NCBI GenBank assembly: GCA_015065545.1
Contig: SVQA01000001.1
Location: 62,001-126,000 of the forward strand
Origin: Oscillospiraceae bacterium
GTDB lineage: Bacteria > Bacillota > Clostridia > Oscillospirales > Acutalibacteraceae
DNA: 64,000 nt
Direction of reading: 5' to 3'
Shown one piece after another: positions 43,231 to 58,676 of this stretch (position 1 is its first letter; each line of letters starts with the position of its first letter). The translations under genes and the position numbers were made by a program. A model generated the notes under the pieces. It ran no database searches. It saw only the letters and a list, made by a program, of their open reading frames with translations, and was not told the DNA's origin.

Positions 43231-43674
43231 TTAAGTTTTTAAATAAGCATTGGTCGGAGCGTAAAAACAATGAGCACCAACTCTGTTATATATAACACCG
43301 ACATCAGAAGGAAAGAATTTAGGGCAATTAGGACTGTATGGATTGAAGAAAAATAACGAATTACCAACAGAGCTATCTGTATTACCTGCTAAAGCCCAGT
43401 CTGCGATGTCATAATGTATTTGTTCAGGTGTAATGTTATATACGTTTTGCGAGTTGTATTCTCCACCTACAAATTCTTTAAGACAAGTAAACTGACACGT
43501 TTGTGTTATAACAGCTCGAAAATCTCCGCCATTATTAACTCGTGAAAATTCCCCATCGTTAGTTAACGCGCGATTTGCAATTACAGAAGCCACTGCTCTC
43601 ATTCCGGTATCCCCCTCGCCTCCTGCTTCGCATTTAATAAGACGCGCAAACAGTTCTCTCGTATCAAGTGCCAT
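43231..43674 (-). CDS. cwlJ: Spore cortex-lytic hydrolase CwlJ
   Basis: A 147-residue hydrolase of the SleB/CwlJ (Hydrolase_2) family that breaks down cortex peptidoglycan during germination. The family blocks ARLIKCEAGGEGDTGMRAVASVIANR (probable catalytic Glu in CEAGGEG), an aromatic NNGGDFRAVITQTCQF segment and NSLFFFNP are visible. No signal peptide or peptidoglycan-binding domain is present, as expected for CwlJ rather than SleB. Co-transcribed with gerQ. Confidence 0.9.
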   Translation of the reverse strand: MALDTRELFARLIKCEAGGEGDTGMRAVASVIANRALTNDGEFSRVNNGGDFRAVITQTCQFTCLKEFVGGEYNSQNVYNITPEQIHYDIADWALAGNTDSSVGNSLFFFNPYSPNCPKFFPSDVGVIYNRVGAHCFYAPTNAYLKT

Positions 43675-43788: not shown

Positions 43789-44865
43789 TTATATGCTGAT
43801 TTTTGCTGCAAAGGAAACTTCAATCAGTTCCTTGCGACTACTCACTCCCAGTTTTGAATATATGTTCCTGTTATGATATTTGAGGGTATTGTCTGAAATA
43901 GATAAAATTTCCTTTACTTCCTTAATTTGCTTGCCACTAACATATAATTCATAAATCTGCTTTTCAGTCGGAGTAAGAGTATGGAGTTTCGAAACAAGAT
44001 ACTCATATTTTTCTGATAATTCATCGTAGGTTTCCACGCAAGAATTCAGGTTAACTTCATTAGAAACATTTGTCTCTTGAATACTATCGTCAGCAGTAAA
44101 AGTAAAAATATTTTGTATTTTTTTATCCTGCAGCAGAAAGCTGATACCGAGTAAGAATAGCTCTGTAACAATATATGAAACAGATAATATCTCAAAGTCT
44201 ATCTTTACGAATTGCTCCATAAGCCAGACGCCGATATTCACAAACACCGACATAAGCAAAAGCACAGCATGTATGCTGGATTTAACTCTTTTTGTAAAAC
44301 GGGCATACAATATAGATGCAATCATAGCACCAAAATAGCCTAAAAGATAATATAAGTACAAGCTGTGAAGCATACCATACTTCTTATCAAGCATCGCAAC
44401 ACCGTCTGTAATAACAAGGGAAACTTCTTTATAGTAAATGTTCAGGTATCCGGGACTTGCCGCTATCAAAAACATAGAGCAGCTCAATCCAATCAATATG
44501 CCAATAAACCATTTCGGAGGATTAATTCCACAAGCAGTTAAAATAAGTATTAGCATAGAAAGAGGTAAAATAACAGATCCCAGATATGCTACCCGATTAG
44601 CAAATAGTGCTTCTTTAAGAGATGAAGATACCGATAGCGAAAGGTAGCCAATATTAACCACCACTACCGCAGAAAACAGAATTACAAACCAAGGTTCTTT
44701 TTTCTTAATAAGGAAACAGTATCCTGCAAGCAATATAATCGCCAACAAAGATGTAACAAAATATATACCCGACATTGTGGCAGATTTTTCACCTATCGCC
44801 GAACAGCCTGACATAGCGAGAAGCAAAAATATGCTGTCTACCAATATGATATTTTTCTTGAACAT
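43789..44865 (-). CDS. Membrane LuxR-family regulator with seven-helix sensor
   Basis: A 358-residue protein. The N-terminal 260 residues hold eight hydrophobic segments, probably an N-terminal signal helix plus a seven-helix sensor like the histidine-kinase N-terminal 7TM domain. A linker of about 45 residues follows. The C-terminal 60 residues are a LuxR (GerE) helix-turn-helix: LTPTEKQIYELYVSGKQIKEV and DNTLKYHNRNIYSKLGV. No kinase or receiver domain is present, so this would be a one-component membrane transcription factor. It is transcribed away from the dockerin locus across a repeat-rich control region, which makes that locus its most likely target (inference). Confidence 0.85.
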   Translation of the reverse strand: MFKKNIILVDSIFLLLAMSGCSAIGEKSATMSGIYFVTSLLAIILLAGYCFLIKKKEPWFVILFSAVVVVNIGYLSLSVSSSLKEALFANRVAYLGSVILPLSMLILILTACGINPPKWFIGILIGLSCSMFLIAASPGYLNIYYKEVSLVITDGVAMLDKKYGMLHSLYLYYLLGYFGAMIASILYARFTKRVKSSIHAVLLLMSVFVNIGVWLMEQFVKIDFEILSVSYIVTELFLLGISFLLQDKKIQNIFTFTADDSIQETNVSNEVNLNSCVETYDELSEKYEYLVSKLHTLTPTEKQIYELYVSGKQIKEVKEILSISDNTLKYHNRNIYSKLGVSSRKELIEVSFAAKISI

Positions 44866-44887
44866 AAGAGAGCTCCTTCACATGTAA

Positions 44888-45000
44888 AGCTTATCGTATT
44901 TTGGGAGTTCCCACCCTATTTCCCACCCTTGTTGGTAAGAATTTTTCACTTTCCCACCCTTAATTTATGCGAAAGGGTGGGGACTTTTGTACGATAAACT
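44888..45000. promoter_or_regulatory. Divergent control region with nested repeats
   Basis: Outer inverted repeat AG(C/T)TTATCGTA at 44888-44898 and its complement at 44990-45000. Inside are three direct copies of TTCCCACCCT (44908, 44920, 44951) and one inverted copy AAGGGTGGG (44973-44981) that reaches the -35 position of the plus-strand promoter. Candidate binding sites for the divergent LuxR-type regulator. Confidence 0.6.
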
Positions 45001-45002
45001 AC

Positions 45003-45008
45003 TATAAT
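45003..45008 (+). promoter_or_regulatory. -10 element of the dockerin locus
   Basis: TATAAT. The position 17 bp upstream (44980-44985) reads GGGACT and lies on the inverted AAGGGTGGGGA repeat, so the -35 is poor and activator dependence is likely. Transcription would start near 45015. Confidence 0.55.
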
Positions 45009-45014
45009 ATATAT

Positions 45015-45255
45015 GCAAGTGTTTGAAGGAGGGTATGAGCCTTGTGCTTTATAAAGCGTTAAGGGTACCCTACTCATACAATTCCCCTTTGTATGAAGTA
45101 TTTGCTTTTTGTAGGAGAAAAACAAATACCGCCCTGCTTTTATAATAAAGTAATTATATTATACTTTATACACTGAGTCAAGAAGAACGCTGAGCAATAT
45201 TTATCTTTTTTCTAAGTTCTAAAAAACTATCATTTTTTAAAAGGAGTCGATCACT
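45015..45255 (+). promoter_or_regulatory. Long structured leader of the dockerin locus
   Basis: About 240 bases between promoter and the first good start codon. GTATGAG (45033-45039) can pair with CTCATAC (45073-45079), enclosing a CCTT/AAGG hairpin; alternatively TCATACAA (45074-45081) can pair with TTGTATGA (45089-45096). The two options exclude each other. A third hairpin pairs GTATTTG (45098) and TTTTT with AAAAA and CAAATAC (to 45129), loop GTAGGAG. I do not recognise a known riboswitch class. A 36-codon frame from ATG 45035 has a ribosome binding site only 2 bases away and is not called. Confidence 0.5.
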
Positions 45256-45330
45256 ATGGGATATGCGGTGATTGTAATTTCTGCTATTATTATCACCACA
45301 ATCATTATTGCAGGATACAGACATTCTTAA
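45256..45330 (+). CDS. 24-residue single-helix membrane peptide
   Basis: ATG GGA TAT ... TCT TAA encodes MGYAVIVISAIIITTIIIAG followed by YRHS. AAAGGAG (45240-45246) stands 9 bases before the ATG, an ideal ribosome binding site. Seventeen of the 24 residues are hydrophobic and form one membrane helix with a short basic C-terminal tail. It is the first translatable frame of the dockerin-locus transcript, 55 bases before the first dockerin gene. No family is recognised. It could be a regulatory or signal peptide for the divergent membrane LuxR protein, or a membrane-targeting leader; both are inference. Confidence 0.6.
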   Translation: MGYAVIVISAIIITTIIIAGYRHS

Positions 45331-45385
45331 GATTTGTATTACAAAAATTACAGATTATAATTATTTAATTTCAGGAGGCAAAATT

Positions 45386-47506
45386 ATGAATAAACGAATT
45401 TTTAGTTTACTTCTATGCTTTACACTTATGCTGACACTTGTTCCTATGTATGTATTTGCGGAAAACTCCCCTAATACAAATTTAATAAAACAGGTTTCAG
45501 TTTCTGGTGTACAGACGCCATATATCGGTGAGCATCCCGATTATTACAGTAAATTGGGAAACACTACTGCTTATACATACGACGACCAGCTTGATGATGA
45601 CCCCGAAGTTTTTGAGGGCAAATGGTGGTATGATGAAACAACTCAGATGGTTATGATGCCTGACGACACATTCAAAAAGGATCATATTTACACCTTCACT
45701 CTACTGCTTGTTGCCAACGAAGGCTATGAGTTCTGGGTTGATAACTACAACACACCTGTTATCAGCGCCTATGTCAACGGTAACGAAGCAAAAGTTTATG
45801 ATGACCTTACAGGCAAGCATCAGGCTATGATTGAATACACCTTTGAGCCTTGTGACTACAATTATGAAATAAAAAAACTGAATGTAAATGTAACCGAACC
45901 TGTACCGGGCGGTTATCCTGATTATAATATTTTCATAGATACAGATGGTGTGGTTAAAGATTCCATCGATTCTCCCTACTACATTTACGGTGTAACATGG
46001 TACGACTGCAAAACCCACACATTCATGAATCCCTCCGACCCCTTTGAGGAAGGCGGTGTTTACGAGGCAACCATCGTACTGACCACAATTGGCGACTACT
46101 ACTTCGCAACCAAGAACGATAAAACCGATGTAATTCCTTACATTAACGGCAACGAGGGCGTTTCGGATGGCGCAGGCAAAAACGACAGATACCATATCCT
46201 TGTTTCATACATTTTTGGCGACGCAAGAGAAGAAGTATCCTATGTAGAAATCACAAATATCAAGGAGCCTGCTATTGGTGCAAGACCCGTCTTCACAGCA
46301 ACTCCTTCAAACAACAAATTCTTCGTAAGCGGTATTTACTGGACCGATGTTACAAATTCCTCGGCAGTCTCTCTCAAAGAAACAGATAAATTCGAGGCAG
46401 GTCACACCTACAATCTTGAGGTGTGGATAAGAGCAAACGATAAATACAAATTCTCCACAGACGAGGATGGGTATATTGACATTATGGCTCTTGTAGGCGG
46501 CCATCAGGCAGAGGTAATGCTGCCGGGCAGTGAAATTTCCGCAGAGCTTTCCCTCACCTTTACACTCTCCAGAGAAACAATTGTGTCCTTCGTTGATGTT
46601 ATGTATATCGATGCCCCTGTTGCAGGCAGAACTCCTGACTACGAAGCTTTCTGTGCCACTCGCGGCTGTAACGTATCCGCAGTTGAATGGTACGATATTA
46701 CCGAGGGCAAAAGCACACTTATGGCAGAAGATGATGTTTTTGAAGAAGGAAGAAGTTACAGAGTTGTTGTCCGTGTAGATGCCGAGGGGAACTACACCTT
46801 TGAAACAGATGATATACACGCTAACATAGCTGAGGGCAATATAAACGGACATAAGGCTGTATCTTACAGTTCCTACGATAATACATATCTTGAGTTGGGA
46901 TTTAATTTTGCAACCTGCGAAAAAGACACATCAAAAATCGTTAAGAAAATCGAGATAGAGAGTATCGACGAACCTGAAACAGGCGACACTCCTGACTATG
47001 ATGCATTATGCCTTACTCCCGGTTGTGAAATTTTAAGCATAGAATGGTGGCTCGATACTGCCGACGGCCGTACTCTTTTAGAAAGAACCGCTACCTTTGA
47101 AGAAGGCAAAGCTTACCGTGTAGTTGTTACAGTAGAAGCAACAGGCGGCTACACCTTCGTTATGTCTGACGGCTATAATGAGGCAGAAGGCTTCATTAAC
47201 AGCAAAAATGCCGTTGAATACGGATCTCACGATGATAAAGAGCTTGAGCTGGGTCTTATTTTTGAGCCCTGCGAAGGTGCTGTATCCATAGGAACATCAG
47301 GTGACGCAGACACAGACGGCAAGGTTAATGTAAAGGATGCAACCGCTATCCAGAAACACACAGCTTCACTTATCTCTCTTTCTGAAACAGGTCTTGTTCT
47401 TGCCGATGTAGACAGAAACGGCAATGTAAACGTTAAGGATGCAACAGCTATTCAGAAATGGATTGCAGGTATAGACACAGGCTTTGTTATCGGAGAAGCT
47501 GTGTAA
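45386..47506 (+). CDS. Secreted five-repeat protein with type I dockerin
   Basis: A 706-residue exported protein with a Sec signal peptide (residues 1-25, cut after VFA). Five tandem repeats of about 110-125 residues follow, starting near 35, 162, 293, 410 and 529. Each runs P-x-x-G-x-x-P-D-Y, then a W-Y-D or W-T-D turn, D-x-F-E-x-G-x-x-Y, an aromatic strand and N-G-x-x-A. A type I dockerin (residues 639-706) ends it, with two calcium-loop segments DADTDGKVNVKDA and DVDRNGNVNVKDA, each followed by AIQK. No catalytic domain is visible. The start is ATG 45386 behind CAGGAGG. The dockerin should bind a cohesin, but none is encoded in the window. Followed by a lipoprotein gene. Confidence 0.85.
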   Translation: MNKRIFSLLLCFTLMLTLVPMYVFAENSPNTNLIKQVSVSGVQTPYIGEHPDYYSKLGNTTAYTYDDQLDDDPEVFEGKWWYDETTQMVMMPDDTFKKDHIYTFTLLLVANEGYEFWVDNYNTPVISAYVNGNEAKVYDDLTGKHQAMIEYTFEPCDYNYEIKKLNVNVTEPVPGGYPDYNIFIDTDGVVKDSIDSPYYIYGVTWYDCKTHTFMNPSDPFEEGGVYEATIVLTTIGDYYFATKNDKTDVIPYINGNEGVSDGAGKNDRYHILVSYIFGDAREEVSYVEITNIKEPAIGARPVFTATPSNNKFFVSGIYWTDVTNSSAVSLKETDKFEAGHTYNLEVWIRANDKYKFSTDEDGYIDIMALVGGHQAEVMLPGSEISAELSLTFTLSRETIVSFVDVMYIDAPVAGRTPDYEAFCATRGCNVSAVEWYDITEGKSTLMAEDDVFEEGRSYRVVVRVDAEGNYTFETDDIHANIAEGNINGHKAVSYSSYDNTYLELGFNFATCEKDTSKIVKKIEIESIDEPETGDTPDYDALCLTPGCEILSIEWWLDTADGRTLLERTATFEEGKAYRVVVTVEATGGYTFVMSDGYNEAEGFINSKNAVEYGSHDDKELELGLIFEPCEGAVSIGTSGDADTDGKVNVKDATAIQKHTASLISLSETGLVLADVDRNGNVNVKDATAIQKWIAGIDTGFVIGEAV

Positions 47507-47539
47507 ATATAAATAATTTTATTTCAAGGAGAAATCATT

Positions 47540-47896
47540 ATGAAAAAAACAATCAAAATTATGGCACTTGTACTCTGTCTTATTTTCACAGCATCTCTTA
47601 TGGCTGCTTGCGGAAATGATAACAAAACAGAAATAAACAACACAACCGACGCAGTAACCACAGCACAGGTTGAAACTACCGCTGCAGCACTTACAATTGA
47701 CGAAGCACAAGCAAAAGAAATCGTATGGACTGACCTTTCTATTCAGGAAACAGCAGCAGAAAATCTCACGGTTGAGCTTAAAGATAATTCTTACATTATC
47801 GCTTTTCAGTGGAGCGGCTTTGATTATCAGTACACAGTAAACGGAGTTACCGGTGTAATTGATGAAATTCTTTTTGACGGCTCTCCCCTCTGGTAA
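47540..47896 (+). CDS. Lipoprotein with PepSY-like domain
   Basis: A 118-residue lipoprotein: signal peptide with lipobox LMAAC (Cys24), a Thr/Ala-rich linker (residues 25-50), and a compact domain starting TIDEAQAKEIVWTDLSI. Its helix-then-sheet pattern with YQYTVNGVTGVIDEI resembles the PepSY fold often found in small exported inhibitors or in metallopeptidase propeptides. It sits 33 bases behind the first dockerin gene and shares its upstream sequence and N-terminus with the lipoprotein at 50.1 kb. Anchored on the outer face of the membrane by inference. Confidence 0.8.
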   Translation: MKKTIKIMALVLCLIFTASLMAACGNDNKTEINNTTDAVTTAQVETTAAALTIDEAQAKEIVWTDLSIQETAAENLTVELKDNSYIIAFQWSGFDYQYTVNGVTGVIDEILFDGSPLW

Positions 47897-47927
47897 TCAA
47901 CCAAATACAACTTAATTTAATAAAGTT

Positions 47928-47959
47928 AAGGGTGATGATAATTCTTCTCATCACCCTTT
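47928..47959 (+). terminator. Terminator-like hairpin between the two dockerin modules
   Basis: AAGGGTGATGA/TCATCACCCTT, 11-bp stem, 9-base loop, flanked by AATTTAA/TTAAATT which can extend it. The T tract is short, so read-through to the second module is possible. Confidence 0.65.
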
Positions 47960-47995
47960 AAATTAAATAACCCTATTCTATCAGGAGGAATCCTT

Positions 47996-50056
47996 ATGAA
48001 AACCAAAAGTATAATTTCACTTTTTCTCTGCCTTATACTTTTAATAAGCTCTGTTTCCTTCGGTACATCTGCAAAGGAAGAGGAAGTAGCAGAAACAGGC
48101 AACTACACATATTACATAGAAAACTATGAACAGCTAAGAAATTTAGCTAAAACTTCTCAATCAGATTGCAGATACATCCTAAGTACCGATATTGAACAGG
48201 TTGATAATCTGAATGATCTGGAGGTTATAATACCTTCAGGTTCAATCTTTAATCTTGACCTTAATGGTTACAGTATCAAGAGAAGCACCAGTGGTAATGA
48301 CCTTACACTCTTCCGTATTAAATCCGACGGAGTGATGACCATAAAAGACACCTCCGCTTCTCAGACAGGCTACTGCGCTTTTTCCGAAGGTTATGGCAAC
48401 CATAACAAGTCGGTTTTTCTCAACGAGGGCGGTGAGCTTGAAATCTTTAACGGCTACTACGAGATTTTCTCACCCTATGAGCAAGGCGACTGCTGTGTAG
48501 TTCGCACCAGCAGCGGATACACAAATATCTATGACGGCACCTTCGATTCAAGCTCTTCCAATGGTGGTGACACAATAAAAGCTAACCACGATGCATATCT
48601 GTACGATACACCCCATGTTACTATATTCGGTGGTGACTTCTACGGTAAATACCAGAGTATAGATGCCTCTGCTTTTGGAAACTACCTTAATTACGCCAAA
48701 GATTATCCCAACGGTGCTCTTCATCCCGCAGTATATGTACTGGGCGGAAACTTTTATATTACCAATGGTGGTAAAGATGGTAAAGATGCAAGCTTTGCCT
48801 ACTGCAACAACGGCTGGGGCAGGGTTATCGTGGCAGAGGGTACAGTCCTTTACAAATGCCTGAACAGCGGAGATCAGAGATTCTTAAACGGTGTTTCCAA
48901 AAAACTCTTCACCGAAACCATAGACGATTATACCGGCGGATACTATGAGGTGACAGCACCTCCTCTTATAATATCTGAGGGTCTTGACTACTATTACAGA
49001 CTAATCGGACTCTGCCAAAAGGCAGAAGTAAATTCCTACGGTGAATCCATATATAACGTTCTCAAAGAGCAGTTTGACTACATTAACAATCAAATCGACA
49101 CAATCTATGTACCTGCAGAGGAGAAAATTTCTCCTGAAATTAAACTTGTAAACCGTACAATTGACCATCAGTATATTAACTGGTATATATGCAACGAGTT
49201 CTCTTACAACGGCGAAGATACCCAGTGGACTCATCTCGGCGATTACCAAAATGTGAGCCAATGGCAATTTGATGATCGTCCTGAAGAAGGCGGGAATTAT
49301 CTTATCCGTTGTGTTGTAACAAACTCCGACCTTACAACCTATGAGGATATTGTTCGTCTTGTATACGAGCCTCTCAAAAGTGATACAATTGTTTCTTCTG
49401 TTGAGGTTAACGATGTAACCATTCCCGCCTGCGGTGAGAAGGTTGACTTCACTCTCGCTCCTGCTGATGACAGCTTCTATATTAATGCCGTTTACTGGAC
49501 AGATGTTACAGATTCTAAAAACAGAGTATATCTCAAAGAAAACGACACCTTTGAAGCAGGTCATAAATACGAATTAGAGGTATGGATAAGGGCCAACGAA
49601 TATTACAAGTTCCAGACCGACTCTGACGGCTGGCTTGAGATTTCGGCAGTTGTAGGAGGGAAAGAAGCTGAGGTTATACTACCCGGCTCATCAATTTCTG
49701 CAGAGCTTCTGGTTACATTTGCGGTAGAGGAAAACGAAATTCCCACTCAGTCTTCAAGCTCTGAAAACACCACTCCCTCTAATCTTACCACCCCTTCCTC
49801 ACCTTCCTATCCTTCCGGTTCGGATAATCCTAATCCAAAAGGAATTTTAGGTGACGCAGACTGCAGCGGCAAGGTAAACGTTAAGGATGCTACCGCTATT
49901 CAAAAACACACAGCTTCTCTTATCACTCTTTCTGAAACAGGTCTAATCCTTGCAGATGTTGATGCAAACACAAATGTAAATGTTAAGGACGCTACCGCCA
50001 TTCAGAAATGGATTGCAGGTATTCCCACATCCTTTCCCATTGGCGAGGCTGTGTAA
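47996..50056 (+). CDS. Secreted beta-helix-like protein with repeat and dockerin
   Basis: A 686-residue exported protein with a Sec signal peptide (residues 1-26). Residues about 35-330 look like a right-handed parallel beta-helix (runs such as FNLDLNGYSI, GVMTIKDTS, GELEIFNGYY and VTIFGGDFYG), the fold of pectate-lyase-like and adhesin domains; no catalytic signature is evident. A region rich in aromatic residues follows, then one repeat (about 466-580) closely similar to repeat 3 of the first dockerin protein, a Ser/Thr/Pro linker (581-618) and a type I dockerin (619-686). Its second calcium loop has Thr in place of Gly (DVDANTNVNV) and may bind calcium less well. A ribosome binding site CAGGAGGAAT precedes ATG 47996. 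Confidence 0.82.
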   Translation: MKTKSIISLFLCLILLISSVSFGTSAKEEEVAETGNYTYYIENYEQLRNLAKTSQSDCRYILSTDIEQVDNLNDLEVIIPSGSIFNLDLNGYSIKRSTSGNDLTLFRIKSDGVMTIKDTSASQTGYCAFSEGYGNHNKSVFLNEGGELEIFNGYYEIFSPYEQGDCCVVRTSSGYTNIYDGTFDSSSSNGGDTIKANHDAYLYDTPHVTIFGGDFYGKYQSIDASAFGNYLNYAKDYPNGALHPAVYVLGGNFYITNGGKDGKDASFAYCNNGWGRVIVAEGTVLYKCLNSGDQRFLNGVSKKLFTETIDDYTGGYYEVTAPPLIISEGLDYYYRLIGLCQKAEVNSYGESIYNVLKEQFDYINNQIDTIYVPAEEKISPEIKLVNRTIDHQYINWYICNEFSYNGEDTQWTHLGDYQNVSQWQFDDRPEEGGNYLIRCVVTNSDLTTYEDIVRLVYEPLKSDTIVSSVEVNDVTIPACGEKVDFTLAPADDSFYINAVYWTDVTDSKNRVYLKENDTFEAGHKYELEVWIRANEYYKFQTDSDGWLEISAVVGGKEAEVILPGSSISAELLVTFAVEENEIPTQSSSSENTTPSNLTTPSSPSYPSGSDNPNPKGILGDADCSGKVNVKDATAIQKHTASLITLSETGLILADVDANTNVNVKDATAIQKWIAGIPTSFPIGEAV

Positions 50057-50090
50057 ATATAAATAATTTATTTTTAAAGGAGAAATCATT

Positions 50091-50477
50091 ATGAAAAACA
50101 CGCTCAAACTTATTGCCCTCATTCTTTGTCTGCTTTTTGTTGCATCCTTAATGGTTGCTTGCAACAAGGATAATGACAAAAAGGCTGAAACACAGGACAC
50201 AACAGCAATAGTAGAAACCACCACAGAAACACCTAAGGAAGCAGGTCTTGTAGGTTCCTGGGTAAGTGAAGATATGCCTGACTATGTTTATGTTTTCAAC
50301 GCAGACGGCACAGGTACTTACTCTGTACTCAAATTCACATACGAGGATTTAGGTGAAAAAATCAGCATTCTCTTTGACGGAAACACCGTTGCATCTGAGT
50401 TTGAATACACAATCGAAGGCAACAAGCTGACACTTATTGATAGTTTTGGCGAACCCGTAGTTTACATTAAAAAGTAA
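50091..50477 (+). CDS. Lipoprotein with small beta-sheet domain (DUF5640-like)
   Basis: A 128-residue lipoprotein with lipobox LMVAC (Cys24), a Thr/Glu-rich linker and a domain that begins LVGSWVSEDMPDYVYVFNADGTGTYS, a pattern seen in DUF5640 and related lipocalin-like lipoproteins of clostridia. Its N-terminal signal region and the 35 bases before it are nearly the same as for the lipoprotein at 47.5 kb, while the mature domains are unrelated. Second half of the duplicated dockerin-lipoprotein module. Confidence 0.78.
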   Translation: MKNTLKLIALILCLLFVASLMVACNKDNDKKAETQDTTAIVETTTETPKEAGLVGSWVSEDMPDYVYVFNADGTGTYSVLKFTYEDLGEKISILFDGNTVASEFEYTIEGNKLTLIDSFGEPVVYIKK

Positions 50478-50505
50478 ATTTACATAGTAATAAGCAATAA
50501 CTTTT

Positions 50506-50550
50506 AAGCACCGCAATTATTGTAAAACAAAATAGTTGCGGTGCTTTTTA
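50506..50550 (+). terminator. Terminator ending the dockerin locus
   Basis: A 15-bp stem starting AAGCACCGCAA and closing TTGCGGTGCTT, one G-U pair, 11-base loop, five T residues. Confidence 0.9.
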
Positions 50551-50607: not shown

Positions 50608-50695
50608 GGAGAGTTGTCCGAGTGGTCGAAGGTGCAGCACTCGAAATGCTGTGTCCCGAAAGGGACCTAGGGTTCGAATCCCTAACTCTCCGCCA
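50608..50695 (+). tRNA. tRNA-Ser(CGA)
   Basis: Acceptor stem GGAGAGT/ACTCTCC, D arm with TCCGAGTGGTCGAA, anticodon stem CAGCA/TGCTG with loop CTCGAAA (anticodon CGA, reads UCG), a long class II variable arm (TCCCGAAAGGGA), T arm GGTTCGAATCC, and encoded CCA at 50693-50695. All features of a serine tRNA are present. Confidence 0.95.
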
Positions 50696-51711: not shown

Positions 51712-52578
51712 ATGAATGATTTTAAAACCAATCCTCAGTTAAACGAAATCACACAAGCATCAACAGAACAACCGATAGCTTCCACCTATTCTCCTTCAGA
51801 AGCAGATGCAATAAATGCAACACCCAAGGTAAACAAATCTAAAAAATCAGTCGGCGCAATGATTTTAGTTATTATACTGATAATTGTACTTTTGGCAGGT
51901 AATGCTGTGTCCGTCTTTCTTCTTACAAGAAAGAGTAAAGGCAATACACTTGCTGATATTGAATTCAACAAAGAATTTACAGATAGTCTCATAAACAGTG
52001 CAAATATGTTTGACAGCGAAGGATTATACATAATCGAAGTCGACGAAAAATACGGCTATATAAACAAAAGCGGAAGTGTTGTTATTAAACCTCAATTTGA
52101 TGATGCCGGTAGATTCTCTGACGGTTTAGCCACTGTAGGTATTGATGGGAAATATGGTGTAATAGACAATAAAGGTAAATATGTTATTTCGCCTCAGTAT
52201 GATGATATTGACTATTTTTCCTGTGGGTTATGTGCAGTTAGGGTTAATGATAAGTACGGCTATATTGACAAAACAGGAAAAGTTATAATTCCTATTATCT
52301 ATCGTGAAGCAAACACAATGAGTAACGATGGTTACGCGTCTGTTCTTACAGATAATAAAGAACGAGCAATAATCGATTCCAAGGGTAAAATAATATACTC
52401 ATTTGATTATTCCGATAACCTCTGCAGAGAGAGCGGTTGTTACAAGCACGTTTACGATGAAGATGAATACTGCTACAATCACGAACCTGCCGAAAAATGT
52501 AAGTGGACAGGCTGCGACAAAGAAGGAACTTATGGAAGCGGTTACTGTTTTAACCACTACTATGCTTTAGAGGACTAA
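51712..52578 (+). CDS. WG-repeat membrane protein with twin Cys-His fingers
   Basis: A 288-residue protein: cytoplasmic Gln/Thr-rich N-terminus, one membrane helix (about 46-72), then WG-type beta repeats (about 105-225) with units such as KYGYINKSGSVVI, KYGVIDNKGKYVI and KYGYIDKTGKVII. The C-terminal 50 residues carry two copies of C-x4-C-x10-C-x2-H, which suggests two small zinc-binding modules on the outer face, unless topology is reversed. The WG part is typical of surface proteins with unknown ligands. It forms a pair with the zinc-ribbon membrane protein upstream. Confidence 0.78.
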   Translation: MNDFKTNPQLNEITQASTEQPIASTYSPSEADAINATPKVNKSKKSVGAMILVIILIIVLLAGNAVSVFLLTRKSKGNTLADIEFNKEFTDSLINSANMFDSEGLYIIEVDEKYGYINKSGSVVIKPQFDDAGRFSDGLATVGIDGKYGVIDNKGKYVISPQYDDIDYFSCGLCAVRVNDKYGYIDKTGKVIIPIIYREANTMSNDGYASVLTDNKERAIIDSKGKIIYSFDYSDNLCRESGCYKHVYDEDEYCYNHEPAEKCKWTGCDKEGTYGSGYCFNHYYALED

Positions 52579-52688: not shown

Positions 52689-52696
52689 AATTATAG

Positions 52697-52768
52697 GTAG
52701 TACATGACTGACGGATTTGCGGAGCACCGCAAGGGAATGTACAACCATATATGCCGACCGTCTGGGCA
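52697..52768 (+). promoter_or_regulatory. ZTP (pfl motif) riboswitch
   Basis: Senses ZTP/ZMP, the alarmone of 10-formyl-tetrahydrofolate shortage. P1 GTACAT/ATGTAC (52700-52705 with 52737-52742), the conserved GACTGACGG strand (52706-52714), a TTGCGG/CCGCAA hairpin, GGG at 52733, and the 3' block GCCGACCGTCTGGGCA. GACGG (52710-52714) pairs with CCGTC (52758-52762) as the pseudoknot; relative to the common GGCGG/CCGCC the pair changes on both sides, which supports the assignment. It precedes pflB, where this motif was first found. Confidence 0.88.
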
Positions 52769-52799
52769 AAACAGTACTGCTGTTTTGCCCTATTTTTTA
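52764..52799 (+). terminator. Riboswitch expression-platform terminator
   Basis: GGGCAAAACAG (52764-52774) pairs perfectly with CTGTTTTGCCC (52780-52790), loop of 5, followed by TATTTTTT. Its first bases are the last bases of the aptamer, so ligand binding should prevent termination. Confidence 0.9.
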
Positions 52800-52833: not shown

Positions 52834-55065
52834 ATGGAACACAAAAACTGGACCGGATTCAAAGGCGGAAAATGGCAGGATGAAATCAATGTTCGCGATT
52901 TTATCCAGACCAACTATAAAGAATACAAAGGGGACCACACTTTTCTTTCTGAAGCTACTCCCCGTACAAAAGATTTAATGAAAAAGGTACAGAATCTTTT
53001 TACTCTTGAAAGACAGTATGGCGGCGTTCTTGATATTGATACAACTACAGTTTCTTCACTTAACAGCTACGCACCCGGATATATTGATAAAGCAAACGAA
53101 CTTATTGTGGGATTGCAGACGAATCGTCCTTTAAAACGTGGTGTTAATCCCTTTGGCGGAATCAGAATGGCACGTCAGGCTTGCGAAGCTTACGGCTATA
53201 AGCTCAGTGATAAAATTGAGGATGAATTCCAGTACAGAACTACACACAATGATGGTGTTTTCAGAGCATACACAGACGAGATGCGTCTTGCAAGAAAGTG
53301 CCACGTTATCACAGGTTTGCCTGATGCTTACGGCAGGGGTCGTATCATTGGTGACTACAGAAGAGTTGCACTTTACGGTATAGATAAGCTTATAGAAGAG
53401 AAAAAGAAGGACAAAGCAAAACTTGCTAAATCCAACTTCAACACAGAGCAGGTTCGTCTTGATGAAGAGCTTTTCCAGCAGATTAACTTCCTTGGCTTTT
53501 TAAAGCAGATGGCATCCATGTACGGTTTCGACATAAGCCAACCTGCACAAAATACAAAAGAAGCAATCCAATGGACTTACTTTGCTTATCTTGCTGCTAT
53601 CAAAGAGCAGAATGGTGCAGCTATGTCTTTAGGCAGAGTAGCAACATTCTTCGATATTTATATTGAACGAGATATTAAAAACGGTATCCTTACCGAAGAA
53701 ACAGCACAGGAGCTTATAGACGATTTCGTTATTAAGCTCAGACTTGCAAGACACTTAAGAACTCCCGAATATAACGAGCTTTTCGGCGGTGACCCCATGT
53801 GGATTACAGAAGCTGTCGGCGGTATGGGCGAAGACGGAAGAACACTTGTTACAAAATCCAGTTTCCGTATTCTCAATACACTTTATACTCTTGGCTCATC
53901 TCCCGAGCCTAACTTGACAGTTCTTTGGTCCACTTCCCTGCCCGACGGCTTTAAAAAGTACTGTGCAAAGGTTTCGTGTGATACCGACTCAATTCAGTAC
54001 GAAAACGATGACCTTATGCGTCCAATTTATGGTGATGACTATGCCATTGCCTGCTGTGTGTCTGCTATGAAGGTCGGAAAGCAGATGCAGTTCTTCGGTG
54101 CAAGATGTAACCTTGCCAAGCTTCTTCTTATTGCTCTCAACGGTGGCTATGATGCCACAAGTAATATCCACATCGGACCTCAGATGCCTGTTATGAATGA
54201 AGATAAGCTTGACTATGAAAGTATTATGGAAAGATTCAAAATTTACATTGAATGGCTTGCAAACCTCTATGTAAACACAATGAACGTTATCCATTATATG
54301 CACGATAAATATGCTTACGAGAAAACACAGATGGCTCTTCACGACACTTATGTTGATCGTTTTATGGCTTTCGGTATCGCAGGACTTTCTGTTGTAGCTG
54401 ACTCTCTCTCTGCAATAAAGTTTGCAGATGTTAAGCCTATTGCAAACGAAGAGGGCTTTATTGTTGATTTTGAAACCATCGGCAACTTCCCCAAATATGG
54501 TAATGATGATGACAGAGTTGATCTCATCGCAAAAGATATGACTCACCTTATGATTACCGAGCTACGCAAGACTCCCACATACAGAGATGCTATCCATACA
54601 CTTTCTGTACTTACTATTACATCAAACGTTATGTATGGTAAAAATACAGGGGCTACTCCCGACGGCAGAAAGAATGCAGAACCATTTGCTCCCGGTGCTA
54701 ACCCTATGCACAACCGAGAAGAAAACGGTGCTCTTGCATCCCTCAACTCTGTTGCAAAAATTAGTTATGATGATTGCCGTGACGGTATTTCCAACACCTT
54801 CTCTATAACTCCCGAAGCACTTGGAAGAAGTGAGGACGATAGACATAGCAATCTTGTTGGTATTCTTGACGGCTATTTCACCAAAATGGCTCATCACATC
54901 AATGTTAATGTTCTTAATCGTGAAACACTTATGAAGGCTTACGAAGATCCTGATGCATATCCCAACCTCACTATCCGCGTATCAGGCTATGCTGTAAACT
55001 TCAACAAACTCTCAAAAGAGCAGCAGAAGGAAGTTATCAGCAGAACCTTCCACGAGGCAATGTAA
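52834..55065 (+). CDS. pflB: Formate acetyltransferase (pyruvate formate-lyase)
   Basis: Glycyl radical enzyme that splits pyruvate and CoA into acetyl-CoA and formate under anoxic conditions. The 743-residue product has the adjacent active-site cysteines Cys407-Cys408 (IACCVSAM) and the radical site Gly718 in RVSGYAVNF near the C-terminus, both expected of true PFL rather than glycerol or choline lyases. Formate feeds 10-formyl-THF and purine synthesis, which explains control by the ZTP riboswitch upstream. A ribosome binding site AAAGGAGAG precedes ATG 52834. The activase gene follows after 2 bases. Confidence 0.97.
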
Positions 55066-58583: not shown

Positions 58584-58676
58584 TGGCGGAGAGAAGGGGA
58601 TTCGAACCCCTGGTACGGTTTTAGCCGTACACACGATTTCCAATCGTGCTCCTTCGGCCAGCTCGGACATCTCTCC
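58584..58676 (-). tRNA. tRNA-Ser(GGA)
   Basis: On the minus strand acceptor stem GGAGAGA/TCTCTCC, anticodon stem CACGA/TCGTG with loop TTGGAAA (anticodon GGA, reads UCC and UCU), class II variable arm GTACGG/CCGTAC, T arm GGTTCGAATCC and encoded CCA. Confidence 0.95.

What the first reader, a model, noticed from the sequence alone, without database searches (positions are those of the whole stretch)
43789..50550. Membrane LuxR regulator facing a duplicated dockerin-lipoprotein locus
Seen: a seven-helix LuxR-type gene diverges from a unit with a long leader, a 24-residue membrane peptide, and two modules of secreted repeat/dockerin protein plus lipoprotein. No catalytic glycoside hydrolase, cohesin or sortase is encoded here. 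Known: dockerins normally attach enzymes to cohesin scaffolds, and one-component membrane LuxR proteins sense outside signals. Inference: a sensor-controlled surface assembly of non-catalytic dockerin proteins, possibly adhesive or substrate-binding. I do not know a described system with this layout.
Basis: partly seen in the sequence, partly recalled or inferred. Interest (0 to 1): 0.75.

Follow-up and report, generated by a model that had tools for sequence, protein, structure and literature searches.

The report
Membrane sensor switch for surface coat
In dozens of gut bacteria a gene for a predicted membrane sensor with its own DNA-binding domain lies beside an operon of mostly export-predicted proteins, with the same repeated DNA boxes and often a conserved, predicted-to-fold RNA leader between them, so it likely works as a one-protein switch for the cell's outer coat, of which the dockerin proteins here would be one local version.

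Summary
A HisKA_7TM+LuxR regulator diverges from an operon of two dockerin proteins and two lipoproteins. Among 84 regulator loci, 58 have [GT]GTGGG boxes 10-13 or 28-32 bp apart upstream (shuffled mean 0.1), and in 40 an inverted box overlaps a poor -35 of the divergent promoter (the window narrowly misses that pattern). The operon transcript would begin with a three-hairpin leader RNA, found in 12 of 161 genomes of the genus and 37 of 80 further regulator loci, with strong covariation and no Rfam match. It travels with the operon, not the regulator. The 24-residue peptide is most simply a lipoprotein signal-peptide relic. Dockerins are one anchor among several: elsewhere SLH proteins, lipoproteins or YdjGHI-like envelope genes stand under the same control. 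This genome has six cohesin and four sortase matches outside the window. Best reading: the regulator likely senses an outside or envelope signal and activates a surface-coat operon. Binding, signal and leader function are untested. New variant of a known kind (membrane LuxR regulators).

The parts
43789..44865 (-). One-component regulator: N-terminal hydrophobic segment ending in Cys21 (lipobox-like), HisKA_7TM sensor, C-terminal LuxR/GerE HTH
   Evidence: Pfam, model, Cys21 invariant in 35 of 35 aligned homologs
44908..44959 (-). Three direct boxes GGGTGGGAA (at 44908-44916, 44920-44928, 44951-44959, read on the - strand), spacing 12 and 31
   Evidence: spacing conserved over 84 loci
44975..44984 (+). 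Inverted box GGGTGGGGAC overlapping the -35 (GGGACT, 44980-44985) of the divergent promoter
   Evidence: sequence; same layout with GACA in 40 of 84 loci, 0 in 100 shuffles
45003..45008 (+). -10 TATAAT of the divergent promoter, 17 nt after the -35
   Evidence: sequence; TATAAT in all 10 rows of A1; TATAAT (5 or 6 of 6) 2-3 nt before the leader model start in 33 of 37 matches
45011..45137 (+). Conserved three-hairpin leader RNA (P1, P2, P3) with SD-like AAGGAGG near its 5' end
   Evidence: covariation, model search, no Rfam family
45153..45181 (-). Near-consensus promoter TTGACT-17-TATAAT toward the regulator
   Evidence: 11 of 12; such a promoter in 42 of 84 loci, shuffled mean 1.3
45256..45330 (+). 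24-codon ORF, most simply a remnant of the F3 lipoprotein signal peptide
45386..47506 (+). Secreted repeat protein with C-terminal dockerin
   Evidence: Pfam PF00404 30.3 bits
47540..47896 (+). Lipoprotein-like protein, 118 aa
   Evidence: ORF with ...AACG lipobox-like start
47928..47958 (+). Hairpin between the two modules (weak T-tract; possible partial terminator or processing site)
   Evidence: z -5.5 for 47915-47972
47996..50056 (+). Second secreted protein (strand-rich N-terminal part, one repeat domain, dockerin)
   Evidence: Pfam PF00404 24.1 bits; model pLDDT 86; 69 of 81 listed homologs have PF00404 precomputed
50091..50477 (+). Lipoprotein-like protein with DUF5640 domain, 128 aa
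   Evidence: PF18692 37.3 bits
50506..50546 (+). Terminator-like hairpin at the operon end
   Evidence: z -7.3, 0 of 200 shuffles as stable

Best explanation
The locus encodes a predicted one-protein membrane switch: a LuxR-type regulator with a seven-helix sensor domain and a lipobox-like N-terminus that likely binds the GTGGG boxes beside its gene and would activate the divergent operon of dockerin proteins and lipoproteins. Likely steps: (1) the sensor, predicted to have its N-terminus outside and its HTH inside, detects an unknown outside or envelope signal; (2) the regulator occupies the direct boxes and the inverted box that overlaps the poor -35 and recruits RNA polymerase (class II activation); (3) the mRNA starts with the conserved three-hairpin leader, whose SD-like AAGGAGG near the 5' end may stabilise or gate the message; (4) the exported proteins join the surface, here presumably by dockerin binding to single-cohesin membrane-anchored proteins encoded elsewhere in the genome. 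The regulator would be made from a near-consensus promoter that faces the operon promoter, so its transcript crosses the leader (antisense) and the boxes, which could limit its own synthesis. Shown: genes, boxes and spacing, promoter-like sequences, covariation, linkage, separate copies without an adjacent regulator. Inferred: binding, activation, signal, roadblock, leader function, attachment.
For: Box array: 186 boxes upstream of 84 regulators against a shuffled mean of 17; 52 pairs at spacing 12 and 38 at 29-31; 58 of 84 loci with a pair against 0.1. Same array at the own-genome paralog facing another lipoprotein; 12-spaced pair only at these two loci in the genome, control pattern 2 hits. 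Inverted box over a -35 ending in GACA, 16-17 nt from TATAAT: 40 of 84, 0 in 100 shuffles. Leader covariation: 19 of 23 pairs changed on both sides against 10.4 shuffled (fitted alignment); 5 pairs on an unfitted one, 1 of 500 shuffles. Leader keeps to the operon side in L137, L165, L166. Operon with array and leader but no adjacent regulator in G124 and G304. First divergent gene export-like in 46 of 63. Dockerins over cut-off in operons of 8 of 12 leader-bearing loci of the genus. Seven-helix model with HTH.
Against: No expression or binding data. 26 of 84 loci lack a box pair at these spacings and 44 of 84 the strict inverted-box promoter, the window among them (GACT for GACA). 43 of 80 loci show no leader match at E<=1. 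The regulator is absent at E<=1e-30 from 102 of 118 relatives. G-U against A-C counts favour the operon strand only 50:30, and helices P1a (4:18) and P3 (4:7) go the other way. Leader folding is not always better than shuffles (window z -2.2, L200 z -0.6). The model is poor over residues 1-28. Many loci are related, so counts are not independent.
Confidence: 0.6

Rival explanations
1. Repressor: the regulator covers the -35 of the divergent promoter and keeps the operon off until a signal releases it.
For: The inverted box overlaps the -35, a place where repressors also sit.
Against: The -35 is poor (GGGACT here), and the regulator's promoter is near consensus, the usual pattern of an activated promoter (established knowledge); TM-LuxR regulators tested in Eggerthella activate (PMC9734109, passages).
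Confidence: 0.2
2. Envelope-stress response: the operon is one arm of a Psp/YdjGHI-like membrane-protection regulon, and the signal is membrane or wall damage.
For: SPFH, zinc-ribbon and TPM proteins, the set of B. subtilis ydjGHI (PMC8581546, PMC11237479, passages), stand in operons of several relatives (L075, L079, L115, L117, L119 and others). This refines rather than excludes the best explanation.
Against: The window operon has none of these genes; in this genome they lie at C9 without the array. PspA was not searched. Only 18 of 67 further loci hold any of the module's proteins or the zinc-ribbon families within 8 kb by my BLAST labels.
Confidence: 0.3
3. Fibre or glycan use: the dockerin proteins bind plant or host glycans, and the sensor detects them.
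For: 53 dockerin and 6 cohesin matches in the genome; solute-binding proteins are the first divergent gene in L159 and L197.
Against: No carbohydrate-active domain reaches its cut-off in the two proteins (CBM_4_9 at 22.3 bits against 25.9 is below it); SLH proteins take their place elsewhere.
Confidence: 0.2
4. The conserved RNA is the regulator's own leader, and only incidentally antisense to the operon.
For: A near-consensus promoter toward the regulator lies just beyond it; helices P1a and P3 favour that strand by G-U counts.
Against: In L137, L165 and L166 the regulator promoter lies on the other side of the boxes and the RNA remains with the operon (leader E-values 3e-4, 1e-6, 3e-3); G124 and G304 have it without an adjacent regulator; four loci have it beside other regulators.
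Confidence: 0.12

Closest known systems
10-12-TM LuxR regulators of Coriobacteriia (DadR, HcdR, CadR; PMC9734109, abstract, section 13 and passages seen)
   Same: Membrane-spanning N-terminal domain joined to a C-terminal LuxR HTH; one-component; encoded near its target; gut bacteria
   Different: 7 helices of HisKA_7TM type plus a lipobox-like start instead of 10-12; exported proteins instead of catechol-type enzymes; shared box array; leader RNA
HisKA_7TM histidine kinases (PF16927) and other bacterial 7TM receptors such as BtsS (PMC10653868, passages seen)
   Same: Seven-helix sensor domain
   Different: No kinase domain found; the sensor is joined directly to a DNA-binding domain. BtsS is of another family (LytS)
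B. subtilis pspA-ydjGHI (PMC8581546, PMC11237479, passages seen)
   Same: SPFH, zinc-ribbon and TPM proteins recur in operons of relatives
   Different: Absent from the window operon; regulator is a 7TM-LuxR rather than sigma-W; 'luxr' does not occur in PMC11237479
Cellulosomes
   Same: Type I dockerins, cohesins elsewhere in the genome
   Different: No catalytic module over cut-off; the cohesin ORFs read carry one Pfam cohesin and a C-terminal hydrophobic segment rather than a cohesin array
STAB-SD 5' mRNA stabilisers (cry3A; PMC4113751, passages seen)
   Same: SD-like sequence near the 5' end not directly before the gene
   Different: Embedded in a conserved three-hairpin structure; effect on stability untested

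Membership tests
10-12-TM LuxR family (Coriobacteriia) | C-terminal LuxR/GerE HTH | tested here: met
   49.1 bits; 24 of 24 homologs in A4
10-12-TM LuxR family (Coriobacteriia) | 10-12 transmembrane helices | tested here: not met
   HisKA_7TM in 24 of 24; seven long helices plus an N-terminal hydrophobic segment
10-12-TM LuxR family (Coriobacteriia) | Activates the neighbouring promoter on a signal | not testable with these tools
   Needs reporter or deletion
HisKA_7TM histidine kinase | 7TM N-terminal domain | tested here: met
   45.5 bits, cut-off 28.6
HisKA_7TM histidine kinase | HisKA/HATPase kinase core | tested here: not met
   No kinase family among Pfam matches at E<=1
Lipoprotein (signal peptidase II substrate) | Hydrophobic start ending in a lipobox Cys | tested here: inconclusive
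   Cys21 invariant in 35 of 35 but Met at -3 here; loose pattern in 65 of 67 loci and 115 of 120 proteins; lipidation untested
Cellulosomal enzyme | Dockerin | tested here: met
   Both proteins over cut-off
Cellulosomal enzyme | Catalytic module | tested here: not met
   None over cut-off
Psp/YdjGHI envelope-stress module | SPFH, zinc-ribbon, TPM genes in the operon | tested here: not met
   Not in the window operon; present in operons of several relatives
Psp/YdjGHI envelope-stress module | PspA | not tested
   No PspA search was run
Known Rfam RNA family | Score over a family's gathering cut-off | tested here: not met
   No match at the leader in the window or nine other loci; only sub-threshold matches at E>=0.9
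STAB-SD stabiliser | SD-like sequence near the 5' end | tested here: met
   AAGGAGG, 6 of 7 or better, at offset 10-17 in 39 of 40; the 5' end itself is predicted
STAB-SD stabiliser | Ribosome binding that lengthens mRNA life | not testable with these tools
   Needs half-life assay
GPCR-like 7TM fold | Fold match of the sensor to solved GPCRs well above background | tested here: inconclusive

The most novel reading that the evidence does not exclude
A family of lipid-anchored, GPCR-fold transcription factors: a seven-helix receptor fused directly to a LuxR DNA-binding domain, widespread in gut Clostridia, commands a surface-coat and envelope-maintenance regulon through a GTGGG box code and a new class of structured leader RNA, each species plugging its own surface anchor (dockerin, SLH or lipobox) into the same control cassette.
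Probability: 0.35. Interest if true: 0.88.

Novelty: new variant of a known kind. Interest (0 to 1): 0.7.

Why it matters
Gut Clostridia carry this regulator widely: 523 of 581 candidate stretches in one genome collection encode a relative, and 2414 of 8000 scored proteins match at E<=0.001 (some perhaps by the HTH alone), yet the five of the 120 listed that have a name are all 'hypothetical protein'. The box array and leader give a sequence handle for finding its regulon and for asking what these bacteria sense at their surface. It also offers a reason why some dockerin proteins carry no enzyme: they may be coat parts whose anchor is interchangeable with SLH domains. The leader is a candidate new RNA family, and a seven-helix receptor wired straight to DNA would be a very short signalling path.

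Tried and rejected
Rejected or led nowhere: (1) The 24-residue peptide as a signal or holin-like peptide: apart from the window's own copies the best tblastn matches in fetched loci were starts of F3 lipoproteins (output cut at its head), confirmed. (2) A short uORF starting at UUG after AAGGAGG: by eye the frames stop at varied places among the sequences; no formal test. (3) TTTCCCACCC elsewhere in this genome: the C12 and C15 hits lie at single sites without an array by eye (control pattern 2 hits). (4) Phage defence: PADLOC gave only weak matches (best 19.2 bits); DUF4428 occurs at the N-terminus of some SNIPE homologs (PMC13190303, passages), not followed. (5) NCBIfam: regulator matches are HTH-level and far below cut-offs. 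(6) PDB by sequence: the 44 matches to A4 centre on the HTH. No microbial rhodopsin is among the 50 rows, which proves nothing. (7) Fold search of the second dockerin protein: weak Ig, FN3 and cadherin-type matches, TM 0.08-0.13 in the rows shown. (8) genome-contig scan with the single regulator found nothing; the alignment query found 523, of which the best 80 were fetched; 13 of the 80 repeat earlier loci. (9) Left out: L081, L082, L083, L085 (distant homologs; in A4, not in operator counts; their starts were chosen by ribosome-binding sites) and L084 (partial). (10) Of 63 first divergent genes found among 67 loci, 53 went to Pfam; the other ten, mostly short or doubtful ORFs, did not. (11) The exported-protein and lipobox tests are crude scripts, not SignalP. 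(12) Ten paper searches showed no paper on a HisKA_7TM-LuxR protein, on dockerin with LuxR, cohesin and Ruminococcus together, or on DUF6935; the library lacks most subscription papers.
Full report
Source. Genus-mates that could be named through the duplicate check (L121, L124, L125) are MAGs titled Ruminococcus sp., Oscillospiraceae bacterium and Clostridia bacterium, two of them from goat gut.

Regulator. 43789-44865(-) carries HisKA_7TM and GerE. The predicted model (pLDDT 77, poor over residues 1-28) has helices at 28-52, 58-79, 83-111, 118-136, 167-190, 197-220 and 224-246, a beta hairpin at 145-163 and the HTH. Before the first of these lies a hydrophobic segment ending in Cys21, which is invariant in 35 of 35 aligned homologs. 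A loose lipobox pattern is met in 65 of 67 further loci, and the two misses also show a Gly-Cys there. The four distant homologs in A4 lack the segment. A cleaved signal would leave the N-terminus outside and, after seven helices, the HTH inside; this is inference.

Operator. Three GGGTGGGAA boxes 12 and 31 bp apart and one inverted box lie between regulator and operon. The own-genome paralog (61% identity) has a like array although it faces another lipoprotein. I counted 84 loci: the 80 plus window, L047, L073 and L079. In 450 nt upstream there are 186 [GT]GTGGG boxes (shuffled mean 17, maximum 28). Distances peak at 12 (52 pairs), 29-31 (38) and 41-43 (36). 58 of 84 loci have a pair 10-13 or 28-32 apart (shuffled mean 0.1, maximum 2) and 34 have both kinds (shuffled 0). 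The inverted box followed by GACA and, 16-17 nt on, TATAAT occurs in 40 of 84 (0 in 100 shuffles); the window has GACT and is not among the 40. A promoter of at least 10.5 of 12 toward the regulator occurs in 42 of 84 (shuffled mean 1.3, maximum 3; other strand 5). Related loci are not independent, so these are not probabilities.

Leader. The first ~125 nt of the predicted operon transcript are conserved. On an unfitted alignment of 8 sequences 96.6% of cells pair, 5 pairs change on both sides (1 of 500 shuffles), and sliding lowers pairing to 31-50%. The covariance model finds 12 of 161 genomes of the genus, one copy each but two here, 8 of 394 of the order, own genome included, and 37 of 80 regulator loci at E<=1; 36 of those 37 lie divergent and within 340 nt of the regulator match, one is 6 kb away. 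On 40 matches at E<=1e-5 (of 93 sources) 93.6% of cells pair (79.5 shuffled) and 19 of 23 pairs change on both sides (10.4 shuffled); that alignment is fitted and leans to the model. The model start follows TATAAT (5 or 6 of 6) by 2-3 nt in 33 of 37. AAGGAGG (6 of 7 or better) stands at offset 10-17 in 39 of 40. Single-sequence folding is better than shuffles for the window (z -2.2) but not for L200 (z -0.6). Rfam gives no match over gathering scores at the leader and only sub-threshold ones at E>=0.9.

Which strand. G-U against A-C cells are 50 to 30 for the operon strand, but helices differ: P1b 30:1, P2 12:4, P1a 4:18, P3 4:7. Arrangement speaks more clearly. In L137, L165 and L166 the regulator promoter lies on the regulator side of the boxes while the RNA stays on the operon side (these leader matches are weak to moderate, E 3e-4, 1e-6 and 3e-3). 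In G124 (C30) and G304 (C50) boxes, leader and operon stand without an adjacent regulator, whose gene lies on another contig. At the G124 regulator itself the boxes face a dockerin protein (41.1 bits) and the model finds no leader (L131). In G274 (two loci), G427 and G250 weaker leader matches (E 5e-8 to 2e-4) precede operons while no full-length 7TM-LuxR is found, and a solute-binding-type lipoprotein gene (PF13416 shown for L116; the others by like sequence) plus a 535-571 aa LuxR-HTH protein stand in its place. So the leader follows the operon.

What is controlled. In 8 of the 12 leader-bearing loci of the genus the operon region (7.5 kb) has dockerin proteins; all 12 such proteins scanned pass Pfam's cut-off (window two; L070 and L072; L102; L072, L073, L074 twice, L079, L100 and L102). 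Of the other four loci, L071 has only 1 kb of contig and L080 4 kb. Recurring partners are DUF4428, SPFH (PF13421), zinc-ribbon, TPM (PF04536), DUF6935, DUF5067 and other lipoproteins. In 67 further loci a first divergent gene was found in 63; 46 of 63 look exported and 15 of those have a lipobox by a crude script. Of 53 scanned, 10 have SLH, 5 fn3, 3 SprB, 3 dockerin, 3 zinc ribbons, 2 a solute-binding domain, 1 DUF6935 and 1 DUF5067. SPFH, zinc-ribbon and TPM proteins make up B. subtilis ydjGHI (PMC8581546 and PMC11237479, passages). In this genome such genes lie at C9 before a further dockerin protein, without the array. Of 81 homologs of the second dockerin protein, 69 have PF00404 precomputed, and 11 of the 81 share the exact longest-contig length with one of the 120 listed regulators, which suggests linkage; this is my comparison of the two tables.

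Peptide. Among 118 N-termini of operon-region proteins the seven F3 lipoproteins take ranks 1-6 and a tie for 7; shuffled peptides reach the best score in 1 of 500 and the mean in 0 of 500. F3 is the first gene after the leader in L072 and L100, and the gap between leader and first long gene is 249 nt here. The 24-codon ORF is most simply a remnant of F3; a working short peptide is not excluded.

Attachment. Five of the six cohesin ORFs were read: all end in a hydrophobic segment, three preceded by PPTG, a sortase-like motif by recall. With 4 sortase matches, attachment of the window's dockerin proteins to the surface is plausible and untested.

Verdict. A real, conserved but patchy control cassette. 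The regulator is a variant of the membrane LuxR regulators known from Coriobacteriia (PMC9734109: abstract, section 13, passages). I found no description of the box array, leader RNA or interchangeable anchors in ten paper searches of a partial library. Function remains inferred.

Noticed in passing
window 52694-52774: ZMP/ZTP riboswitch (RF01750, 65.1 bits) just upstream of a 743-aa ORF at 52834-55065 that reads like pyruvate formate-lyase (by recall), followed by an activating-enzyme-like ORF.
   Followed up: no
L070 and L102 (L127) against L071-L073 and L079, leader hairpin P3 loop: The P3 loop reads GCGCCAAC in 25 of 40 leaders but as its reverse complement in 2, as if the loop had flipped inside its inverted repeat. 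Unexplained.
   Followed up: partly
L114, L115, L116, L120: A solute-binding-type lipoprotein plus a large membrane LuxR-HTH protein appears to replace the 7TM-LuxR in front of the same kind of leader; operator letters differ.
   Followed up: partly
L217 3386-9718 (C9 of this genome): SPFH, zinc-ribbon, a third ORF read as TPM-like by position, then a 969-aa protein at the site of a dockerin match, without the box array.
   Followed up: partly
L047 (C4:198000-212000): Paralog regulator with box array, decayed leader (36 bits) and a lipoprotein that clusters with DUF5067 proteins of relatives' operons.
   Followed up: partly
window 43231-43674 and 51712-52578: Cell-wall hydrolase (PF07486) next to the regulator, and a WG-repeat protein beyond the operon.
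   Followed up: no
window 50608-50695 and 58584-58676: Two tRNA-Ser genes (CGA, GGA), the first directly after the operon terminator.
   Followed up: no
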